NCBI RefSeq assembly: GCF_000826125.2
Contig: NZ_LN651373.1
Coordinates: 781,084-842,909 of the forward strand
Length of the DNA stretch: 61,826 bases
From: Bhargavaea cecembensis
GTDB taxonomy: Bacteria > Bacillota > Bacilli > Bacillales_A > Planococcaceae
Direction of reading: 5' to 3'
The notes below the pieces were generated by a model. That model saw nothing but the letters and a program-made list of their open reading frames with translations, was not told the origin of the DNA and did not search any database. A program made the position numbers and the translations under genes. Numbering within the stretch: position 1 is the first letter of the stretch; the number at the start of each line of letters is the position of its first letter. Of the stretch, positions 6,569 to 61,826 are shown in pieces.

Positions 6569-6840
6569 GCGTTATTTATCTAGGGGAAAGCGTTGTTTAT
6601 CTCGGGCGAAACGTTTCGTATCTCGGGCGGAACGTTGTTTATCTCACGCAGAACGTTGCGTATCTCGAGTTGTTTATCTTCAATGAGGCATCGAGTAATC
6701 TAATAACGTTGCGTATCTCAGGTGAAACGTTGTGTATCTCAACCAAAGCGTTGCTTATCTGCAATGAAACGTTTCGTAACTCACCCGGTAGTCAGTTGGA
6801 GAGCAGCACGACTCTCTCAATCAGTTCGAAAATTTAAAAT
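6569..6840 (+). repeat. 21-bp tandem repeat array A (nine to ten units)
   Basis: The gap after the EamA gene consists of 21-base units built on AACGTTGYGTATCTC plus six variable bases (often GGGCGA). Five units run without a break from about 6567, then about 30 diverged bases, then four more units to about 6810. The core AACGTT is palindromic, and some units extend it to CGAAACGTTTCG. The same unit in reverse complement forms arrays B and C. Units abut without spacers. The repeats give artefactual heptapeptide-repeat reading frames that I do not regard as genes. Confidence 0.85.
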
Positions 6841-8044: not shown

Positions 8045-8660
8045 AAGTTTCAGCGAAGATACACAACGCTTCGCCAGAGATACGAAACGTTTTGCCGAAG
8101 ATACGCAACGCTTCACCTGAGATACACAACGTTTTCTGAGATGCGTAGCGCTTTGCCGAGATACACAACGCTTCTCCTGAGATACGCAACGTTTCGCTGA
8201 AGATACGCAACGCTTCGGCCGAGATACACAACGTTTTCTGAGATGCCTATCGCTTTGCCGAGATCCGCAACGCTTCATCTGAGTTACGAAACATTTTGCC
8301 GAAGATCCACAACGCTTTGGCCGAGATACACAACGTTTTCTGAGATGCGTAGCGCTTTGCCGAGATCCGCAACGCTTCGCCGAAGATACGAAACGTTTTG
8401 CCGAAGATCCACAACGCTTCACCTGAGGTACGCAACGTTTTCTGAGATGCGTATCGCTTTGCCGAGATCCGCAACGCTTCGCCGAAGATACGAAACATTT
8501 TGCCGAAGATACACAACGCTTAGGCCGAGATACACAACGTTTTCTGAAATGTGTATCGCTTCGCCGAAGATACGCAACGCTTTGTCGAAGATCCACAACG
8601 CTTAGGCCGAGATACACAACGTTTCACCCGAGATACGCAACGCTTCACCTCAGATACCTT
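8045..8660 (-). repeat. 21-bp tandem repeat array B (about 29 units)
   Basis: The 659-base gap between the NERD gene and the aminotransferase gene is almost entirely repeats. The unit is GAGATACRCAACG followed by a YTTYGCC-type tail, 18-22 bases long and mostly 21. It is the reverse complement of the array A unit. A block of five units recurs every 102 bases: the GAGATACACAACGTTTTC-type unit starts at 8119, 8221, 8323, 8425 and 8527. There are no unique spacers and no recognisable gene. No terminator for the NERD gene is evident. Confidence 0.88.
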
Positions 8661-18455: not shown

Positions 18456-21400
18456 ATGGCAATGAAGACCAAGTCTTATAGCAAGTTCATGACTGGCGCC
18501 GTAACAGCTGCAATGGTCGCATCCGCAGTAGCACCAGTAGCAGCGGCAGGACAAGATCAGGACGTAGCAGCAGATGCAAGCTCTTCGTTCACAGACATCT
18601 CGCCTAACAGCTCCCACTTCCTCAACGTACAAGAAGCTCGCGAACTCGGCTTCCTTTCCGGTTACGATGACGGAACATTCAAGCCGAACAAGATCCTCAA
18701 CCGCGGCGACGTTGCGAAAATGCTCGGAAAGTACGTTGTTGCGACAAGCGGCAAGACTCTCTCCGAATATGTACGTGACAACAAAATCGATGATGTTAAA
18801 AACTTCAAGGACGTTCCAAACAACGCCCCTGACAAAGAACTCGTAACTTACTCGAAGATCGTCAAGCACGCAGGAATCTTCGAAGGCTCCGACAACAACC
18901 TCATGGCAACAAAAGAAATGAACCGCGACCAGATCGCAGTCGTTCTCGTCCGTGCGTTTGACCTGAAAGACAAAGCAGGCGACACGAAAGTAATCGACGG
19001 CGCAGGTTCCGCATATGAGAAAGAAATCGAAATCCTTCTTGAAAACGGCGTATCCGACGCCAACCCTTACCGTCCATTCAGCAAAACGAGCCGTGCACAG
19101 TTTGCATCGTTCCTCGTACGCGCTTACAAAGTTTCCATGGGCTGGGCTCCAGACAAGCCACTTCCTGAAGAACCAGGCGATGGCAATGGCGATGGCGACG
19201 GAAACGAAAAGCCGGATCCGGAACAGCCGGGCGTTGACTTCGAAGGCGATATTAGTATCGAAGCTTCGAAAGCCAACCTTCTCGCAGATGGCAAAGATAC
19301 AGCAGAGATCACATTCTCTATCCTTGGAAAAGACGGAAAAGTAGATACGAACGCAGACGATATCGTCCTCGAGCTCGACACTACTCACGGTACATTTGCC
19401 TCCAAGCGCGTAGCAGTTCAGAACGGTGTTGCAAAAGCAACTCTGACATCTGAGCAGAGCAACAAAGATGTTGAAGTTCTGGTTACTGCAAAAGTAGCTG
19501 AAGCAGGTGCAGGCTATAAAGAAATGATCGGTAAGAAAGCATCTTACGGAAATATTAACTTTGTTGCCTATAACCAAAATGTTGAAACTCTTAACCTCAC
19601 TGGTGCAGAGTCCAATCAGACTGACCGAGTGACGCTTCACTTTGACCGTCCTGTAAAGCTTGAAGACTTTGTCATTACTAGCCCGGTTACTGGAGACATC
19701 AACTATCAATACCTTATGGATGATGGCTCTTGGAGTGCGCCGACACCAGAAGTTGATCCAAATGTAGACCCATCTGAAGTTCGTCACGCACTTAAGCCAG
19801 GCGCAATTGAAATCGAAAACATTCGGGATGGAGCAGGTGGTTCCCGTTACAATGACTTTGGCATCCTTGGTCTGAAGCCTATCGAGGGGGATCCGAATTC
19901 GATTGAGGTTATCCTTGAAAACGATACAATTCTTCAAGATAATAGCCATGTATTCGTTACTACACTCTTCACATCGGATTCCGGTAAGATTTCCAACTCC
20001 CGAACAGAATTTATTGTAACAGATGCTCGTACGCCTGAAGTTACAAAAGTAACTAACGAAGGTCTCAATAAGGTCCAAGTTAAATTCTCCGAATCGATCA
20101 GACCTGACACTGGCTCTTTCCGGATCGACGGCACATATCATGTTAACGCTGATACCGACGCAGAGATTGAGTACGGTGAGTTCGATGTATTCACTCTGAC
20201 AGACAACAGAGATCTTGTAACAATTACACTGGGTGAGAACTATTTCACAACACCTACACCTCCGGGATACTTTACTCCTGGCCAACATAAGATCCAGGTG
20301 GCTGATGCACGCGACTTCGCTGGCAACAAAGTTACTACACAAGATTTCAAGTTCACGGTTGATGCAAACACGACCCAGCCAACCGCTAAAGTTGAAGTTG
20401 CATCTCCAGAACAGTATCACGTAACGTTTGAAACAGATGTTGACGGAGCAGAGGTTGGAGACTTCCAGTTCCAAGTATATGATGAGACGACAAAAACGTG
20501 GAAACCGGTAACATACTCTCAAAACCTTACAGGCGAGGAAATCGTAAAAAATGGACCTGTTACTGCCGGCGACGAAGTTCAACTAATTGTTTCACGCCTT
20601 GGCAAAAACAAGTATGCATTTGAACTTCCAGCTGACTGGACACAAATTTACAACACAAACGTAACAAACGATAACTATTACAATCACAAGTACCGTGTTG
20701 TATATGCAAAAGATGCGCTTAAAAACCTTGCAAATGGCGTGACAAACGCTGAAGCAATTGAAATCGGCCTCAATTATGCTGGTTCTCCTCTAAATGAACT
20801 GGACACAGAGAGCCCTAAGATTACAGATGTTGTTCAGCACTCCACATCCTCTAAGTTTACTGTTAAAACAGATGAGCCAGTTAAACTTGCAGGAGAAGAC
20901 AATGCTGGAGATACCCTTAGCCAAGAACAAGAGTCTACGAATGCCGGCACTCTTCCACAAGTTAAAGGGAAAATTGTTGCTACAGCAACTGACGGCAAGA
21001 AATTCGAAGTAGACGCTGAAATTCTGGGTTACACGCCTAAAAATAATTACGATAACAGCTTTGACATTCAAGCTGCTCACGTAACACTGGACAAGGATGT
21101 AACATCGAATCGTGTTCCACTGATTAAAGCAGGAACGTACACCCTTCAACAGCTTGTTGACTTCGGTTACTTTAACACTGACTTTAAATTGGTTGTCAGC
21201 CAATTGACTGATGATGTGGGCAATACTGCCGACACTGCTACATTTGACTTTAAGATGGCAGCGACTGTAGTCAACCCAGATCTTACTCCATTCTACATTG
21301 TTAATGCAGGTTATACCGATTCCAGATTCCCTGTAGAGATTGCTGTTACATTCTCCGAAGGAGTTTCCGCCGGTGTAACTGATGTAACAAAGTGGAACAT

Positions 21401-22337
21401 TAACGGTAAAGATCTTCCAGTGGGCACAGAAATTAGAGCGGTAGATAATGATCAACTGCCTGGAAATGAAACTGTAATCATTTCTGTTAAAGACCCATCG
21501 GTCTTCATGTATGAAGATAACTTGTCGTTCGTTGGCGATGCGTTTGAATGGACAAACGTAATCACAGTCGACAGAGATATCGTTGCAGCTGACGGTTCGA
21601 AGTTGACAGGCCGCAATCAAGTCGTTGTAGGAACACCACCATTTCTTCAAAACGTCGCTCATACAATGGCCTTGATGCAGCGTGTTGCGGCACTCGATAG
21701 TGTATCGTTAGGCGATGAGGCCCTGGTTCAATCTGCTTGGGATTCCTTTGTTGCTCTGACAGCAGAGGAACAAGACTTCATCACTAAAGATTTAATCGGT
21801 GCGGTTGAGGATGCGGCAGATGCTATTGATGCACTGAAGGCAGCAGACCAAGCAGTGAAAGGGCTTTTCGATGACGCTGGTCAAATTCTTGATAGCACGG
21901 ATCAGGCCGCAATTACTAACGCCCAAAACCTGACAACAGCAGCACGTGAAGCCGGCGGCAACACGGCAGGCCTTCAGGCTCAGCTTGACAAGGCAAAAGC
22001 ACAGCTTAAAGCACGAGAAGATGCTACAAATGCAGAGAGAATAGCAGCAGAAGCAGCTGCTAAAACTGCAATTGAAACTGCAGCTCCATTCTTGGCGGAC
22101 GTAGATTTTGATTTCGCAAACGCTACGAACGAAGAGCTTGTAGCTTTGAAAGAAGCCTTGGATAATGCAGGAGCAATTGACCTTGGCTCACTTGAGGCAG
22201 ATATTCAAGCTTCTGTAGGTGAAGGTAACCCAATTACCGCAGAAGCAGTTGCCGGTTTCTTCGAAGCCAACTCTGGCGATATTCCAGCAGCACTTCAACC
22301 GGTAGCAGATGCATTTGTAAACGTTGTGCGCCCATAA
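18456..22337 (+). CDS. S-layer protein with three N-terminal SLH domains
   Basis: This 1293-residue exported protein has a signal peptide (to about AAA31) and three SLH domains at about 43-95, 105-160 and 165-215, with LNRGDVAKML, MNRDQIAVVL and TSRAQFASFL. A Gly/Asp/Asn-rich linker follows near 235-255. Then come Ig-like domains, the first with an invasin-like LLADGKDTAEITFSI, and a long acidic body with few aromatic residues. An Ala-rich helical tail (about 1085-1290) ends the protein. Size, domain order, low Cys content and the consensus promoter with a long leader indicate a major S-layer subunit. Codon use (many GTA, GCA, CTT, AAA) differs from the GC-ending style of the neighbours, as in a highly expressed gene. 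It lies directly after the polysaccharide operon and is followed by the 183-bp terminator array. Confidence 0.92.
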   Translation: MAMKTKSYSKFMTGAVTAAMVASAVAPVAAAGQDQDVAADASSSFTDISPNSSHFLNVQEARELGFLSGYDDGTFKPNKILNRGDVAKMLGKYVVATSGKTLSEYVRDNKIDDVKNFKDVPNNAPDKELVTYSKIVKHAGIFEGSDNNLMATKEMNRDQIAVVLVRAFDLKDKAGDTKVIDGAGSAYEKEIEILLENGVSDANPYRPFSKTSRAQFASFLVRAYKVSMGWAPDKPLPEEPGDGNGDGDGNEKPDPEQPGVDFEGDISIEASKANLLADGKDTAEITFSILGKDGKVDTNADDIVLELDTTHGTFASKRVAVQNGVAKATLTSEQSNKDVEVLVTAKVAEAGAGYKEMIGKKASYGNINFVAYNQNVETLNLTGAESNQTDRVTLHFDRPVKLEDFVITSPVTGDINYQYLMDDGSWSAPTPEVDPNVDPSEVRHALKPGAIEIENIRDGAGGSRYNDFGILGLKPIEGDPNSIEVILENDTILQDNSHVFVTTLFTSDSGKISNSRTEFIVTDARTPEVTKVTNEGLNKVQVKFSESIRPDTGSFRIDGTYHVNADTDAEIEYGEFDVFTLTDNRDLVTITLGENYFTTPTPPGYFTPGQHKIQVADARDFAGNKVTTQDFKFTVDANTTQPTAKVEVASPEQYHVTFETDVDGAEVGDFQFQVYDETTKTWKPVTYSQNLTGEEIVKNGPVTAGDEVQLIVSRLGKNKYAFELPADWTQIYNTNVTNDNYYNHKYRVVYAKDALKNLANGVTNAEAIEIGLNYAGSPLNELDTESPKITDVVQHSTSSKFTVKTDEPVKLAGEDNAGDTLSQEQESTNAGTLPQVKGKIVATATDGKKFEVDAEILGYTPKNNYDNSFDIQAAHVTLDKDVTSNRVPLIKAGTYTLQQLVDFGYFNTDFKLVVSQLTDDVGNTADTATFDFKMAATVVNPDLTPFYIVNAGYTDSRFPVEIAVTFSEGVSAGVTDVTKWNINGKDLPVGTEIRAVDNDQLPGNETVIISVKDPSVFMYEDNLSFVGDAFEWTNVITVDRDIVAADGSKLTGRNQVVVGTPPFLQNVAHTMALMQRVAALDSVSLGDEALVQSAWDSFVALTAEEQDFITKDLIGAVEDAADAIDALKAADQAVKGLFDDAGQILDSTDQAAITNAQNLTTAAREAGGNTAGLQAQLDKAKAQLKAREDATNAERIAAEAAAKTAIETAAPFLADVDFDFANATNEELVALKEALDNAGAIDLGSLEADIQASVGEGNPITAEAVAGFFEANSGDIPAALQPVADAFVNVVRP

Positions 22338-22343
22338 TTATCT

Positions 22344-23624
22344 AGTGTAGGGTTTCGCTATTAGGTATTAAATGAAATGTATTTTCCAATATCCTGTGGT
22401 TGAACAACATAGTACTCTATGTTGTTCGAACCGCAGGATATTTTTATTTTGGCTCTACAATATTTGTTGGGGTACAGGTACACATCCCCTTAATAAAAAA
22501 GGCACGCAACCTTCCAATTCTCTATAAGTGTAGGGTTTCGCTATTAGGTATTAAATGAAATGTATTTTCCAATATCCTGTGGTTGAACAACATAGTACTC
22601 TATGTTGTTCGAACCGCAGGATATTTTTATTTTGGCTCTACAATATTTGTTGGGGTACAGGTACACATCCCCTTAATAAAAAAGGCACGCAACCTTCCAA
22701 TTCTCTATAAGTGTAGGGTTTCGCTATTAGGTATTAAATGAAATGTATTTTCCAATATCCTGTGGTTGAACAACATAGTACTCTATGTTGTTCGAACCGC
22801 AGGATATTTTTATTTTGGCTCTACAATATTTGTTGGGGTACAGGTACACATCCCCTTAATAAAAAAGGCACGCAACCTTCCAATTCTCTATAAGTGTAGG
22901 GTTTCGCTATTAGGTATTAAATGAAATGTATTTTCCAATATCCTGTGGTTGAACAACATAGTACTCTATGTTGTTCGAACCGCAGGATATTTTTATTTTG
23001 GCTCTACAATATTTGTTGGGGTACAGGTACACATCCCCTTAATAAAAAAGGCACGCAACCTTCCAATTCTCTATAAGTGTAGGGTTTCGCTATTAGGTAT
23101 TAAATGAAATGTATTTTCCAATATCCTGTGGTTGAACAACATAGTACTCTATGTTGTTCGAACCGCAGGATATTTTTATTTTGGCTCTACAATATTTGTT
23201 GGGGTACAGGTACACATCCCCTTAATAAAAAAGGCACGCAACCTTCCAATTCTCTATAAGTGTAGGGTTTCGCTATTAGGTATTAAATGAAATGTATTTT
23301 CCAATATCCTGTGGTTGAACAACATAGTACTCTATGTTGTTCGAACCGCAGGATATTTTTATTTTGGCTCTACAATATTTGTTGGGGTACAGGTACACAT
23401 CCCCTTAATAAAAAAGGCACGCAACCTTCCAATTCTCTATAAGTGTAGGGTTTCGCTATTAGGTATTAAATGAAATGTATTTTCCAATATCCTGTGGTTG
23501 AACAACATAGTACTCTATGTTGTTCGAACCGCAGGATATTTTTATTTTGGCTCTACAATATTTGTTGGGGTACAGGTACACATCCCCTTAATAAAAAAGG
23601 CACGCAACCTTCCAATTCTCTATA
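22344..23624 (+). repeat. Seven perfect tandem copies of a 183-bp terminator/IS-end unit
   Basis: Copies start at 22344, 22527, 22710, 22893, 23076, 23259 and 23442. By eye they are identical. Each begins AGTGTAGGGTTTCGC, contains a roughly 24-bp stem hairpin with a T-rich tail, then GGCTCTACAATATTTGTTGG, which resembles the left terminal inverted repeat of ISL3-family elements, and ends CCAATTCTCTATA. The seventh copy runs directly into the body of the ISL3-like element. The block is probably the S-layer gene terminator plus the adjoining IS end, duplicated together after the insertion. No gene lies in these 1281 bases. The exact copy number depends on assembly quality. Confidence 0.92.
22388..22450 (+). 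terminator. S-layer gene terminator (first of seven copies)
   Basis: AATATCCTGTGG starts a stem of about 24 bp whose 3' arm ends CCGCAGGATATT, with one bulged base and a GTACTC loop. TTTTTATTTT follows. The same hairpin recurs every 183 bases, six more times. Confidence 0.88.
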
Positions 23625-24690
23625 CTTGAATTGACGAGAAACAAGCAGAGAATGGAGTTGCATGCCAATGAATTCTATCATGTATTTGCCTGGCTTGAAA
23701 GAGGTTATCATCACTGGAATGGAAGAACAGGAGGACCGGCTGGTCCTTCATGCAGAACTGGAAGACCGAATCCATACTTGCCCTTCCTGTGGTTCGAAGA
23801 CCCGTAAGGTCCATGATTATCGTGTGCGTAAAGCGGGTCATCTGAAGCTCTTTGAGCGCTTAACTACCATCTTTTATCGACAGCGGCGTTCCGCTTGTCA
23901 AAAATGCCGAAAATGCTTCAGTGAAAGAAATCCGATCGTGGGCAGGTATCAACGTTTTGCGAAAGAATGGCATCAGGCCTTGTCCCTACTTTGCGTAAAA
24001 GCGAAGACATTTAAGGAAATGGCCGTTTCTTTTGAGCCTCCGCTACCACTGTTACACATCGTTTTGATGACTTGGCAGAGAAAGCAGTGTCACCACCCGG
24101 AAAACTTCCTAAAGCTATTGCCATTGACGAATACAAAGGGGACACGTCTGCCGGAAATATCAGGTGATCATTGCGAACGCAGCCACCCGGCAGCCAATAG
24201 ATGTCTTGCCTGTCCGAAAGGTCGAAACTGTCAAGACCTGCCTGCAATAACATGAAGGCGCCGTTGAGGTGATCGTTATGGACATGAGTTATACGTTCAA
24301 GAGTGCAGTTAAGAAGGCGCTCGGCAATCCGGTCATCGTTATGGATCGGTTCCACTTCGTGCGTTACGTCCATTGGGCATTAGAACGAATTCGTGTACGT
24401 GTTCAGAAAGAGTTCAGCGATTAAGACCGCAAGCATTGCAAGAGGATTCGCCATGTATTCCATAAGCAGTCGGATCAGCTGACCGAGAAATAGAAGTGGT
24501 ACCTGGACCGATACCTAAATATGCATCCAAACCTTCGAAAGCGGATGCGCTTAAGGAAGCGTTTAAGACGTGGTTGAATGATGCCAAGACTTCGGGGCTG
24601 GATGGAATGGCGAAAAGAAAAAGGATCTCGCTGTTCTTCTGCTCCTCTGGGTCCCTTGTTAGGCAAGATGCGATATCAAACAAGTCATTT
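23534..24690 (+). mobile_element. Decayed ISL3-family insertion sequence, right end not found
   Basis: The left end is taken as GGCTCTACAATATTTG in the seventh 183-bp copy (start near 23546). The body is the broken transposase gene. I could not find a matching right inverted repeat (it would end near TTGTAGAGCC) between 24600 and 24955, so the right end is deleted or too diverged. The boundaries are approximate. Confidence 0.6.
23662..24690 (+). pseudogene. ISL3-family transposase pseudogene
   Basis: The first ~125 residues are an intact ISL3 transposase N-terminus: a zinc finger (CPSCGSKTRKVHDYR with CQKCRKCF), the LKLFERLTT segment, and RYQRFAKEWHQALSL. Near 24040 the frame shifts. RFDDLAEKAVSPPGKLP and AIAIDEYKGDTSAG, with the first catalytic aspartate, continue in another frame, which breaks again near 24160. 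Later pieces such as VIVMDMSYTFKSAV and MDRFHFVRYVHWALERI carry further catalytic-core motifs but contain several in-frame stops. The last ~150 bases are barely recognisable. The enzyme cannot be functional, so any current movement would need a transposase elsewhere. It lies between the two S-layer genes. Confidence 0.88.
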
Positions 24691-24813
24691 GCGCTTACCT
24701 AATTCTATAGTCTTTCCTTCTCTGACTTCATCCATTTAAGGAATGTACGCACGGATGGCGTCTTCCTATTGTTTACATCCAGCTATTGGAAATATGTTGG
24801 TGCTATATTTGAA

Positions 24814-24842
24814 TTGCTATCGTAATCATTTAAACGTAAAAT
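24814..24842 (+). promoter_or_regulatory. Putative promoter of the second S-layer gene
   Basis: TTGCTA (24814-24819) lies 17 bases from TAAAAT (24837-24842). The leader of about 105 nucleotides contains an inverted pair, GGGGAG (24900-24905) with CTCCCC (24921-24926), upstream of the AGGAGG site. Confidence 0.55.
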
Positions 24843-24955
24843 AGTATTCTGAGACTATAACTCTCGTGTTTTCAATGCGATAGACAGGGTATTAGTCTAG
24901 GGGAGGACATATATTATGATCTCCCCGATTATTGTATTCTTAGGAGGATGTAGAT

Positions 24956-27628
24956 TTGAGAACCAAGACATACAAGAAGTTTGCGACAGCGACAGCAACC
25001 ACTGCTTTGATGGCGAGTGCAATCGTACCGGTAGCGGCAGCTGCTCCTGCTACACAAGATGCCCAAGACGTAGCTGTTAATTCCTATACAGACGTACCTG
25101 TTACCAGCTCGCACTACAAGAACATTATTCGTGCCCGCGAACTTGGCATCATGACGGGTTATGATGACGGAACATTTAAGCCGAACAAGCAGCTCAACCG
25201 CGGTGATGTGACAAAGGCGCTGGGCAAGTTTGTTGTGGCGCGCAGCGGAAAGTCTCTGGATGAGTATGTTGCAGACAATAACATTGCTTCTGTCCCTAAC
25301 TTTGATGATGTCCCGAACGACTGGGTGGACAGCGAGCTTCTTACTTTCTCTAAGATCGTAAAAGAGGCAGGCATCTTTGAGGGATCGGACAACAAGCTGA
25401 TGCCAACACGACTGATCAAACGTGACCAGATGGCAGAGGTACTGGTTCGTGCCTTCGATTTTGAAGATCAGCCTGGTAAACCGGATCTCGTAGGCGTTGA
25501 AGGCTCGGGCTATGCCAAGTCTATTGAGATTCTTTACGAAAATGGAATTACCGACCAACTGGACTTCCGTCCGCTCAGCCCGACGAGCCGCGCCCAGTTC
25601 GCATCGTTCCTTGTCCGTTCTTACGACGCCACGGTAGAACCTCCTACAGAAGAACCGGAAGAGCCGGCATTCGTAGTCAAGTCGGTTGAGGCTGTCAGCG
25701 CAACTGTTGATGCCAACACAGACAAGCAATTCGCCACATTCACAATCAACGATGGTGAAAAAGCGGATCTTGCGAAGCTTCAGGAAGAAGGCTATACGGT
25801 TGAGTTCCTCTCGACTGTTACGGGTCTCTTCGTAGATAAAGCAACGGGCGAGCTGGACGAAAGCAAAATGAAGGCAGGAGACGAAATCCGCTTTGAGGTT
25901 AACGTTTCCAAAGATGATAAAGTCCTCACTTCTAACAAGGCAACATTGAAAGTTGAAGACTTCGCATCGACCATTGCATCACTTGACAGCTATGAATTGA
26001 AGCTTGACAACGGCCAGGTTGTTGTCGGAGGCACTATCGTCCTTGATGAGAAGGCCTCTATTGCTAATGTACTGGGTACGACAAAAGCAGGAGAAAAGGA
26101 AAAGCAAATCCCTGCTGGTCAGTTGGTCTTTACCTCTTCGAACCCGCAAGTCGTACAAGTCAATGATAACGGCGAATTGACTACAGTGGCACCAGGTTCG
26201 GCGACCATCACCGTCAAACATGAAGGCTCCGGTGAAGAGCTTACTGTTCCGGTGAAAGTTAAATCCGAAGCCCGCGTTGCTGCAACAGCTAAAGCAAATG
26301 TAGATAAAATTGGCCTTCTCAGGGAACAGCAACGCACATTTGGATTCAGTGTAACTGACCAATATGGCATGCCGTTTGATGAAGGCGAGACGAATAAGAT
26401 TACTGGAACCATGGATGTTAAAGATGCTGACGGCAAAACGACTATTGCCACAGTGACAGTGACCAAAGATGACAAAGCTGGACAATATGTGGCTGAAGTG
26501 GTTGCTAAAGACTTGAGCGAGACCGCAAGCGGCAATGTTGTGATCAAAGCCGGTGAGAAAGAACTTCTTAGCATTCCATTGACGGTTGGTACGGACATTG
26601 AAGCCGAATCGTATCGCTTGGAACTGGCTGATGGCTCACAAGATACAACACTTGATGTGAATCCGGTTGCCAAAGATGATAATTTGACTCTTGTCCTTAA
26701 CCAGTACAATAAAGAGGGCCTCCTCATTGGAGCAACTGAGGATGTCGGCGATAAGTACTCGGTAAGCACAAACAACAATAATGTAACAGCAACAGTTGGA
26801 GATAAAGGAGTCATCACTGTTGAAACGAACGACAACACCAAAACAGGCACGACGGTGGTTTCCGTAAAAGAGGGCGAGCTGCTGGTCGATCAAATCACCA
26901 TCACTGTGGTTAATACGACTCCTGCCATTAAATCCATCAAATTTGGTGCAGATGAAGTGACCACTGCTCCTGTAAAACTTTCGGATCTTTTGGATGCAGA
27001 AAACATCACCCTTTCTTCAAATGCTAACGTGGATATTGAATTAGTGAAAAACGTTCCTACTATCTATGCAGAAACATCCACGGAAGCCGACGGTTATCAA
27101 GCAGGTCAGGATATCCTGCTGGGTACTGTGGATATTGCGGCAACCACAGGCCTGGGCACTCTCACATTTGTAGAGGGTGGAGAAGATGATACGATTCTTC
27201 TGACAGGCTTCGAAGCTGGAGATAAAGGCAACTTTACTCTTCGCGTGCGCAAAGACAATCAAGTTCTTGGTACGCATATCGTAAATGTTAAAGATGTGAA
27301 GATGGATCAAGCCACAACTCTTCAAGAGTTCCAAGGCATGGTCAATAACAAGGAAGGCGTCACTGGCTTGGACTTCACAAAGGACGAGGATTTCAAGAAA
27401 GCTACTGTAGAGCAGATTCAAGCAGTTTCTATAGCTGTCCAGGAAGCAAAGCCTGCAGACTTGGCGATTCTTCCATCGAACGTAGCGGAACTTAAGGAAT
27501 GGGTCCGTAGTGCGAATCTTGAAGCTGAAGAAGGCGAAGATGGTTTTGTTCCAGAAAACCACAAAGCGCTTGTAGAAGCTTTCCAGGCAATCTACGGAAC
27601 GGCTGCCACTGAAACTGCATCAAACTGA
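24956..27628 (+). CDS. Second S-layer-type protein with three SLH domains
   Basis: This 890-residue exported protein starts at TTG 24956, nine bases after AGGAGG (24942-24947). Its start (RTKTYKKFATATATTALMAS) closely parallels that of the gene at 18456. The signal peptide ends near VAAAAP. Three SLH domains span about 40-215 (LNRGDVTKAL, IKRDQMAEVL, TSRAQFASFL). Ig-like modules follow, including a Big_2-type FTSSNPQVVQVNDNGELTTVAPGSATITV (about 390-430). The acidic C-terminal body has no enzyme motif. It is probably an alternative or accessory S-layer subunit. The SLH regions of the two proteins are paralogous while the bodies look unrelated. Codon use is again less GC-biased than the surroundings. 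Confidence 0.9.
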   Translation: MRTKTYKKFATATATTALMASAIVPVAAAAPATQDAQDVAVNSYTDVPVTSSHYKNIIRARELGIMTGYDDGTFKPNKQLNRGDVTKALGKFVVARSGKSLDEYVADNNIASVPNFDDVPNDWVDSELLTFSKIVKEAGIFEGSDNKLMPTRLIKRDQMAEVLVRAFDFEDQPGKPDLVGVEGSGYAKSIEILYENGITDQLDFRPLSPTSRAQFASFLVRSYDATVEPPTEEPEEPAFVVKSVEAVSATVDANTDKQFATFTINDGEKADLAKLQEEGYTVEFLSTVTGLFVDKATGELDESKMKAGDEIRFEVNVSKDDKVLTSNKATLKVEDFASTIASLDSYELKLDNGQVVVGGTIVLDEKASIANVLGTTKAGEKEKQIPAGQLVFTSSNPQVVQVNDNGELTTVAPGSATITVKHEGSGEELTVPVKVKSEARVAATAKANVDKIGLLREQQRTFGFSVTDQYGMPFDEGETNKITGTMDVKDADGKTTIATVTVTKDDKAGQYVAEVVAKDLSETASGNVVIKAGEKELLSIPLTVGTDIEAESYRLELADGSQDTTLDVNPVAKDDNLTLVLNQYNKEGLLIGATEDVGDKYSVSTNNNNVTATVGDKGVITVETNDNTKTGTTVVSVKEGELLVDQITITVVNTTPAIKSIKFGADEVTTAPVKLSDLLDAENITLSSNANVDIELVKNVPTIYAETSTEADGYQAGQDILLGTVDIAATTGLGTLTFVEGGEDDTILLTGFEAGDKGNFTLRVRKDNQVLGTHIVNVKDVKMDQATTLQEFQGMVNNKEGVTGLDFTKDEDFKKATVEQIQAVSIAVQEAKPADLAILPSNVAELKEWVRSANLEAEEGEDGFVPENHKALVEAFQAIYGTAATETASN

Positions 27629-59671: not shown

Positions 59672-59688
59672 GCGGGGGCGTTTCGGGT

Positions 59689-59836
59689 GAGATACGAAAC
59701 GTTTTGCCGGAGATACGCAACGTTCTGCCGAAGATACGCAACGTTTCGTCTGAGATAGACAACGTTTTGCTGTAGATACACAACGTTCCACCGAAGATAC
59801 GCAACGTTTTGCTTAAGATCCACAACGTTCCGCCGA
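59689..59836 (-). repeat. 21-bp tandem repeat array C (seven units)
   Basis: Seven consecutive units of exactly 21 bases, each a variant of GATACGCAACGTTTTGCC with a three-base lead, all keeping the palindromic AACGTT. The unit and orientation match array B. It begins right after the flippase gene and ends about 35 bases before the promoter of the SulP gene. Confidence 0.88.
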
Positions 59837-61597: not shown

Positions 61598-61826
61598 GAG
61601 TCGTCCGGGTCGAGCGTTGAGTCGGTCGCATCCGGGCTTGAGTCGTCCAGGTTTTTATTTCCAGGGGTGAGTCATCCGGATCCGGCCTCGAGTCGGTCGC
61701 ATCCGGGGTTGAGTCGTCCGCATTCGGCCTCGAGTCGTCCAGGTTTTTTTTCAGGCGGTGAGTCGTCCGGATCCGGCCTCGAGTCGGTCGCATTCGGGGT
61801 TGAGTCGTCCGCATTCGGCCCCGAAT
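61598..61826 (+). repeat. 21-bp tandem repeat array D (different sequence, continues past the window)
   Basis: Units start GAGTCGTCC or GAGTCGGTCGC and continue GGATCCGGCCTC, CATCCGGGGTT or similar, mostly 21 bases long. Two longer units of 28-29 bases carry a T run (AGGTTTTT). The order of unit types partly repeats, so there is a second-level period. The sequence is unrelated to arrays A-C but the period is the same. The array starts about 35 bases after the SulP terminator and reaches the window end. No gene is evident. Confidence 0.85.

What the first reader, a model, noticed from the sequence alone, without database searches (positions are those of the whole stretch)
22344..23624. Seven identical 183-bp copies of a terminator plus IS end behind the S-layer gene
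The copies appear perfect, so the amplification is recent, kept uniform, or an assembly artefact. Each holds the large S-layer terminator hairpin and a GGCTCTACAATATTTG motif that looks like an ISL3 left end. The seventh runs into a dead ISL3 copy. The simplest history is IS insertion behind the terminator followed by tandem duplication of the junction. Seven terminators in a row would strongly insulate the second S-layer gene from the very active first one, and seven IS ends would give an active ISL3 transposase many substrates.
Basis: partly seen in the sequence, partly recalled or inferred. Interest (0 to 1): 0.75.

Follow-up and report, generated by a model that had tools for sequence, protein, structure and literature searches.

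The report
Seven-fold terminator array seeded by ISL3
A jumping gene of a kind that seems to land just behind transcription stop signals landed behind a surface-layer protein gene and decayed, and the stop signal plus the jumping gene's tip was then copied into seven identical tandem repeats.

Summary
The array is real in this assembly: 22344-23624 is exactly 7 x 183 bp without a mismatch. Each unit is 107 bp of the S-layer gene's 3' tail, with a 25-pair terminator hairpin, plus the first 76 bp of an ISL3-family element. The seventh unit runs into that element's wreck: a frameshifted transposase with stops, about 310 of 402 residues, no right end found.

Relatives of this element sit behind intrinsic terminators, left end towards the T-tract: 54 of 79 distinct insertions, against 5.5% of intergenic positions and 3 of 31 IS256 copies. 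Among copies with a perfect 8-bp target duplication it is 23 of 27. The terminators differ from site to site and lie outside the element, so they look like targets, not cargo.

The array is younger than the IS's death, or kept uniform. The two genus-mates that have this locus show one terminator and no IS. No other ISL3 transposase was found in this genome, so "substrates for an active transposase" is unsupported. Seven-fold insulation is untested. I read the amplification as largely neutral.

The parts
18456..22337 (+). first S-layer-type gene, 1293 aa, SLH domain
   Evidence: SLH PF00395 3.4e-13; translation
22344..23624 (+). array of 7 identical 183-bp units
22344..22526 (+). unit 1; the others start at 22527, 22710, 22893, 23076, 23259 and 23442
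22388..22442 (+). intrinsic-terminator hairpin of unit 1 (25 pairs, one bulge), followed by a T-rich tract; repeated every 183 bp
   Evidence: 60 nt before the IS tip fold at -33.1 kcal/mol
22443..22450 (+). TTTATTTT, presumed left copy of the 8-bp target duplication (right copy not found)
   Evidence: inferred from relatives
22451..22526 (+). first 76 bp of the ISL3 element in unit 1; other copies start at 22634, 22817, 23000, 23183, 23366 and 23549
23549..24597 (+). remnant of the ISL3 element that the seventh unit runs into; right end not found
23599..23666 (+). hairpin over the transposase ribosome-binding site in the remnant; the array breakpoint lies at the edge of its loop
   Evidence: z -5.49, 0 of 200 shuffles as low
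23668..24597 (+). dead transposase: four pieces in changing frames matching residues 1-310 of a 402-aa relative
   Evidence: zinc ribbon PF14690 2.5e-10; DDE_Tnp_ISL3 at 24131-24571 with 3 stops
24956..27628 (+). second S-layer-type gene, 890 aa, SLH domain, TTG start behind AGGAGG

Best explanation
An ISL3-family insertion sequence of a clade that inserts into the T-rich tract of intrinsic terminators landed behind the terminator of an S-layer gene and died there (frameshifts, stops, lost right end). Later a 183-bp stretch running from 6 bp behind the S-layer stop codon, over the terminator, to 76 bp inside the IS was tandemly duplicated by illegitimate recombination and expanded to seven copies by unequal crossing-over or slippage. 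The copies are recent or kept uniform. The array gives the S-layer transcript seven terminators in a row, of which the first probably does nearly all the work; the extra copies are most likely a neutral or weakly useful by-product. Shown: the array, its composition, the dead IS, the terminator association of the clade. Inferred: that the association is target choice, the order and mechanism of the duplication, and the effect on transcription.
For: Array and unit structure. IS identity. Terminator association: 54 of 79 flanks at the strict threshold, 61 of 79 at the lax one, against 973 of 17801 intergenic positions and 3 of 31 IS256 left ends, 0 of 31 right ends (Fisher p 2e-8). Folding energy of the 60 nt before the IS: median -17.9 against -7.5 kcal/mol at 661 intergenic control points. 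23 of 27 copies with a perfect 8-bp duplication. 9 of 12 further named copies that do not share a flank with that set. The two genus-mates with this locus have one terminator behind the S-layer gene and no match to the IS left end. The transposase carries 3 stops and changes of frame, while the seven units show no difference over 1281 bp.
Against: 25 of 79 flanks lack a terminator by the strict rule (the window's own site is one of these, missed for its bulge). No right end or second target-duplication copy is left in the window. The duplication junction shows no clean microhomology: AATTATCTA near one breakpoint and AATTCTCTA near the other match at 8 of 9, but the junction holds extra bases. 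Survival of harmless insertions could add to the terminator association. No reads, RNA data or second strain.
Confidence: 0.8

Rival explanations
1. Assembly or consensus artefact: one or a few copies were over-expanded or polished to identity.
For: Seven perfect copies are unusual; no reads are on hand; the assembly is given as 6.72% contaminated.
Against: The window lies inside a 2.07-Mb contig in a 4-contig assembly, which suggests long reads that would span 1.3 kb (inference); short-read assemblers tend to collapse tandem copies rather than add them (general knowledge).
Confidence: 0.1
2. The array is selected as a terminator battery that insulates the second S-layer gene from read-through or seals the 3' end of a very abundant messenger.
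For: Seven strong hairpins in the sense direction between two co-directional S-layer genes; copies uniform.
Against: Returns fall off after one or two efficient terminators (inference). The second gene starts about 1.3 kb beyond the array with its own promoter-like match at 24814-24842 (a weak match, fewer found than in shuffles). Genus-mates manage with one terminator.
Confidence: 0.2
3. The terminators before these ISL3 transposases are not targets but parts of the IS that protect it from outside transcription, as Naville and Gautheret 2010 proposed for terminators upstream of IS genes.
For: That paper lists ISL3 in Firmicutes among IS genes with upstream terminators and reads such terminators as intrinsic IS 5' elements (passages).
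Against: Here the hairpins lie outside the left inverted repeat, the perfect 8-bp duplications lie between hairpin and IS or inside the T-tract, and hairpin sequences differ from site to site. The protective structure that the element does carry is another hairpin, over the transposase start.
Confidence: 0.05
4. No target choice: insertions elsewhere were purged, and sites behind terminators remain because they are harmless.
For: Intergenic positions behind genes are the least harmful sites; copies without a perfect duplication still show 31 of 52.
Against: Intergenic background only 5.5%; IS256 in the same bacterial family 3 of 31; the association is stronger, not weaker, in cleaner copies, 23 of 27; inward terminators at the right end only 5 of 39.
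Confidence: 0.12

Closest known systems
ISL3 family of insertion sequences (NCBIfam NF033550, Pfam PF01610 and PF14690)
   Same: Transposase family, zinc ribbon, inverted repeats beginning GGYTCT, 8-bp target duplication in relatives
   Different: Window copy is dead and lacks its right end; the preference of this clade for terminators was not described in the papers that I saw
'Mobile attenuators' of Naville and Gautheret 2010 (PMC2965389, passages seen)
   Same: Terminators found upstream of IS transposases, ISL3 of Firmicutes among them
   Different: They read the terminators as IS-borne; here they lie outside the element and differ per site
Group IIC introns, which insert behind intrinsic terminators (recalled; one search found no paper with its terms)
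   Same: Target is the downstream side of a terminator hairpin
   Different: RNA-based retroelements; here a DDE-type DNA transposon. No Rfam match in 22300-24960
Tandem duplications and minisatellites seeded by mobile elements (recalled)
   Same: Tandem copies with a junction inside an IS
   Different: The unit joins a terminator and an IS end, seven perfect copies

Membership tests
ISL3 family | ISL3-type transposase domains | tested here: met
   Zn_ribbon_ISL3 2.5e-10; DDE_Tnp_ISL3 4.9e-34; intact relative from G265 scores 336 bits against NF033550, cut-off 180
ISL3 family | terminal inverted repeats | tested here: inconclusive
   Left end present and shared with relatives; right end not found in the window. 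Relatives have both
ISL3 family | 8-bp target duplication | tested here: inconclusive
   Not testable at the window copy for lack of the right end; 29 of 39 relatives with a called right end have 8 bp with at most 1 mismatch, 27 of 79 copies have perfect ones
ISL3 family | intact transposase (an active member) | tested here: not met
   Four pieces in changing frames, 3 in-frame stops, residues 1-310 of 402
intrinsic terminator | stable hairpin followed by a T-rich tract | tested here: met
   sequence
intrinsic terminator | stops transcription | not testable with these tools
   needs RNA mapping
group II intron | conserved intron RNA | tested here: not met
   No Rfam match at gathering score in 22300-24960
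MITE or non-autonomous IS | both inverted repeats present in the mobile unit | tested here: not met
   Units carry only the left end

The most novel reading that the evidence does not exclude
A clade of ISL3 transposons in the Lysinibacillus family and other Bacilli recognises intrinsic terminators as target sites (hairpin, T-tract or the terminating RNA polymerase), always presenting its left end; dead copies leave their left tip fused to a strong terminator, and such fusions can be amplified into terminator batteries like this one.
Probability: 0.65. Interest if true: 0.65.

Novelty: new variant of a known kind. Interest (0 to 1): 0.5.

Why it matters
A DDE transposon that aims at intrinsic terminators would have a safe-harbour strategy: it avoids genes and sits where outside transcription has just been stopped. 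How it reads the site (DNA hairpin, T-tract or stalled RNA polymerase) is directly testable in a laboratory host. It also re-reads an earlier observation of terminators upstream of ISL3 transposases. The array itself is a natural test piece for how much redundant terminators matter and how perfect tandem copies stay uniform.

Tried and rejected
Rfam: none.

A promoter inside the unit that would make six small-RNA genes: considered, since the IS start region has a TATAAG or TATACT box, but no promoter-like match lies in the array (3 found in the region against 7.3 in shuffles). Not pursued.

Tandem arrays at the other IS copies: TRF on 82 loci found tandem repeats in some, none including the IS left end.

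Dropped before the count of 79: 86 hits were found in 80 loci; six of the seven window copies and one duplicate flank (L139) were dropped. Places whose match began after the first four bases were not fetched, except two that came automatically (L113, L120). At most 3 candidates were scored in most genomes, so copies are under-counted. Antisense terminators also occur in the last 45 bp at 11 of 79, as expected of two-way stems. Of 32 named loci, 6 lacked the transposase start and 2 an IRL; 18 of the remaining 24 were positive, and 12 of the 24 repeat flanks of the first set.

Literature: ten searches gave no paper describing terminator targeting by ISL3. The library lacks most subscription journals, so this is no proof of absence. 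PMC9208149 (passages) reports ISL3 over-represented between co-directional genes. PMC11702846 (passages and one section) reports DNA with an ISL3 element at its 3' end inserted behind an rRNA operon with an 8-bp duplication. PMC8024623 and PMC12056078, passages only, add nothing on targeting.

Full report
What is there. Window 22344-23624 is seven perfect 183-bp units, found nowhere else in the 3.16-Mb, 4-contig assembly. The unit has two halves. The first 107 bp begin 6 bp behind the stop codon of a 1293-aa SLH-domain S-layer-type gene and hold a 25-pair hairpin with a T-rich tail. The last 76 bp are the left end of an ISL3-family element, beginning GGCTCTACAATATTTGTTGGGG. Units are AT-rich (36% GC) in a 54% GC window.

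The seventh unit continues into a dead copy: zinc ribbon and DDE domain of ISL3, four pieces in changing frames over residues 1-310 of a 402-aa relative, three in-frame stops, and no recognisable right end. It is the only ISL3 transposase match in the genome at the thresholds used (completeness given as 98.93%).

What relatives show. The left end occurs in 57 of 261 genomes of the bacterial family, own included. I took the 30 loci given automatically and fetched the other 50 listed places whose match began within the first four bases. After dropping six window copies and one duplicate there were 79 distinct flanks. Of these, 54 have a stem of score 18 or more followed by a T-tract starting within 45 bp of the IS; at laxer thresholds 55 and 61. 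The same rule is met at 973 of 17801 intergenic and 541 of 84423 ORF positions in the same flanks. As a second control I took 31 IS256 copies from the same bacterial family, with ends defined by comparing copies: 3 of 31 left ends and 0 of 31 right ends, or 5 and 2 at the lax threshold; Fisher p 2e-8 for 54/79 against 3/31. Plain folding agrees: 49 of 79 flanks at -15 kcal/mol or lower against 62 of 661 control points.

The ends are well defined. Where a right end was called (39 copies, the weakest calls doubtful), 29 have an 8-bp duplication with at most one mismatch. Perfect duplications are 89% A+T, and 23 of 27 such copies lie behind a terminator, against 31 of 52 others (p 0.02). Terminators facing the right end are few, 5 of 39 at threshold 15. 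So the preference is oriented: left end towards the T-tract, transposase reading in the direction of the stopped transcript.

A scan of named genomes gave 24 testable copies, 18 positive; 12 of them repeat flanks of the first set, and of the 12 new ones 9 are positive, in Compostibacillus, Rossellomorea, Heyndrickxia, Aquibacillus, Bacillus sp. CH30_1T and B. coahuilensis.

How it most likely arose. The IS hit the T-tract of the S-layer terminator, as its relatives do at other genes. In the two of seven other genus genomes that match the S-layer proteins, reading the stretch behind the first S-layer gene shows one clear terminator hairpin, and neither genome matches the IS left end. The IS then decayed. 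The breakpoint inside the IS lies at the loop edge of a hairpin that covers the transposase start, and both breakpoints sit near an imperfect 9-bp match, but the junction is not a clean microhomology joint; I call it illegitimate recombination. Expansion to seven needs only unequal crossing-over between 183-bp repeats. With no difference in 1281 bp beside a transposase with stops and frameshifts, the array is much younger than the IS's death, or is homogenised.

What it does. By anatomy it puts seven sense-direction terminators between two co-directional S-layer genes. I expect the first to carry most of the load. The claim of strong insulation is plausible but untested, and selection for seven copies is not needed to explain the array. 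The idea that the ends feed an active transposase lacks a transposase in this genome.

What is known. The papers that I could search did not describe terminator targeting by ISL3 (ten searches, listed in Tried and rejected). Naville and Gautheret (PMC2965389, passages) noted terminators upstream of ISL3 transposases in Firmicutes and read such terminators as part of the IS; the site-to-site difference of the hairpins and the position of the duplications argue for targets instead. The nearest functional parallel, group IIC introns, is recalled. A large survey (PMC9208149, passages) found ISL3 over-represented between co-directional genes, which fits.

Limits. The association could in part reflect survival, though the controls and the cleaner copies speak for target choice.

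Noticed in passing
L095 around 185-216; L121 around 1487-1516; L151 (reverse strand) at its IS start: In 3 of the 79 flanks the IS left tip is preceded directly by another 14-17-bp copy of the same tip, with no remainder of a first IS seen in the locus; perhaps repeated hits at one terminator or a footprint of loss.
   Followed up: partly
window 6570-6783, 8057-8657, 59679-59836, 61616-61824: Other short tandem arrays of 21-bp type units (AGATACGCAACGTTTCGCC-like, and another kind at 61616) in the window.
   Followed up: no
L246-L251 (G226), flanks of IS256 copies: IS256 elements of the control set lie in short CTATGAGCG-type repeats in G226, which may be targets of their own.
   Followed up: no
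window 23599-23666 and the same place in relatives: The ISL3 element carries a hairpin over its transposase ribosome-binding site, like the protection known (recalled) from IS10 and IS50 (window copy only).
   Followed up: partly
window 18456-22337 and 24956-27628: Two neighbouring SLH S-layer-type genes; 13 and 14 matches to their queries in the own genome suggest a large SLH family.
   Followed up: no
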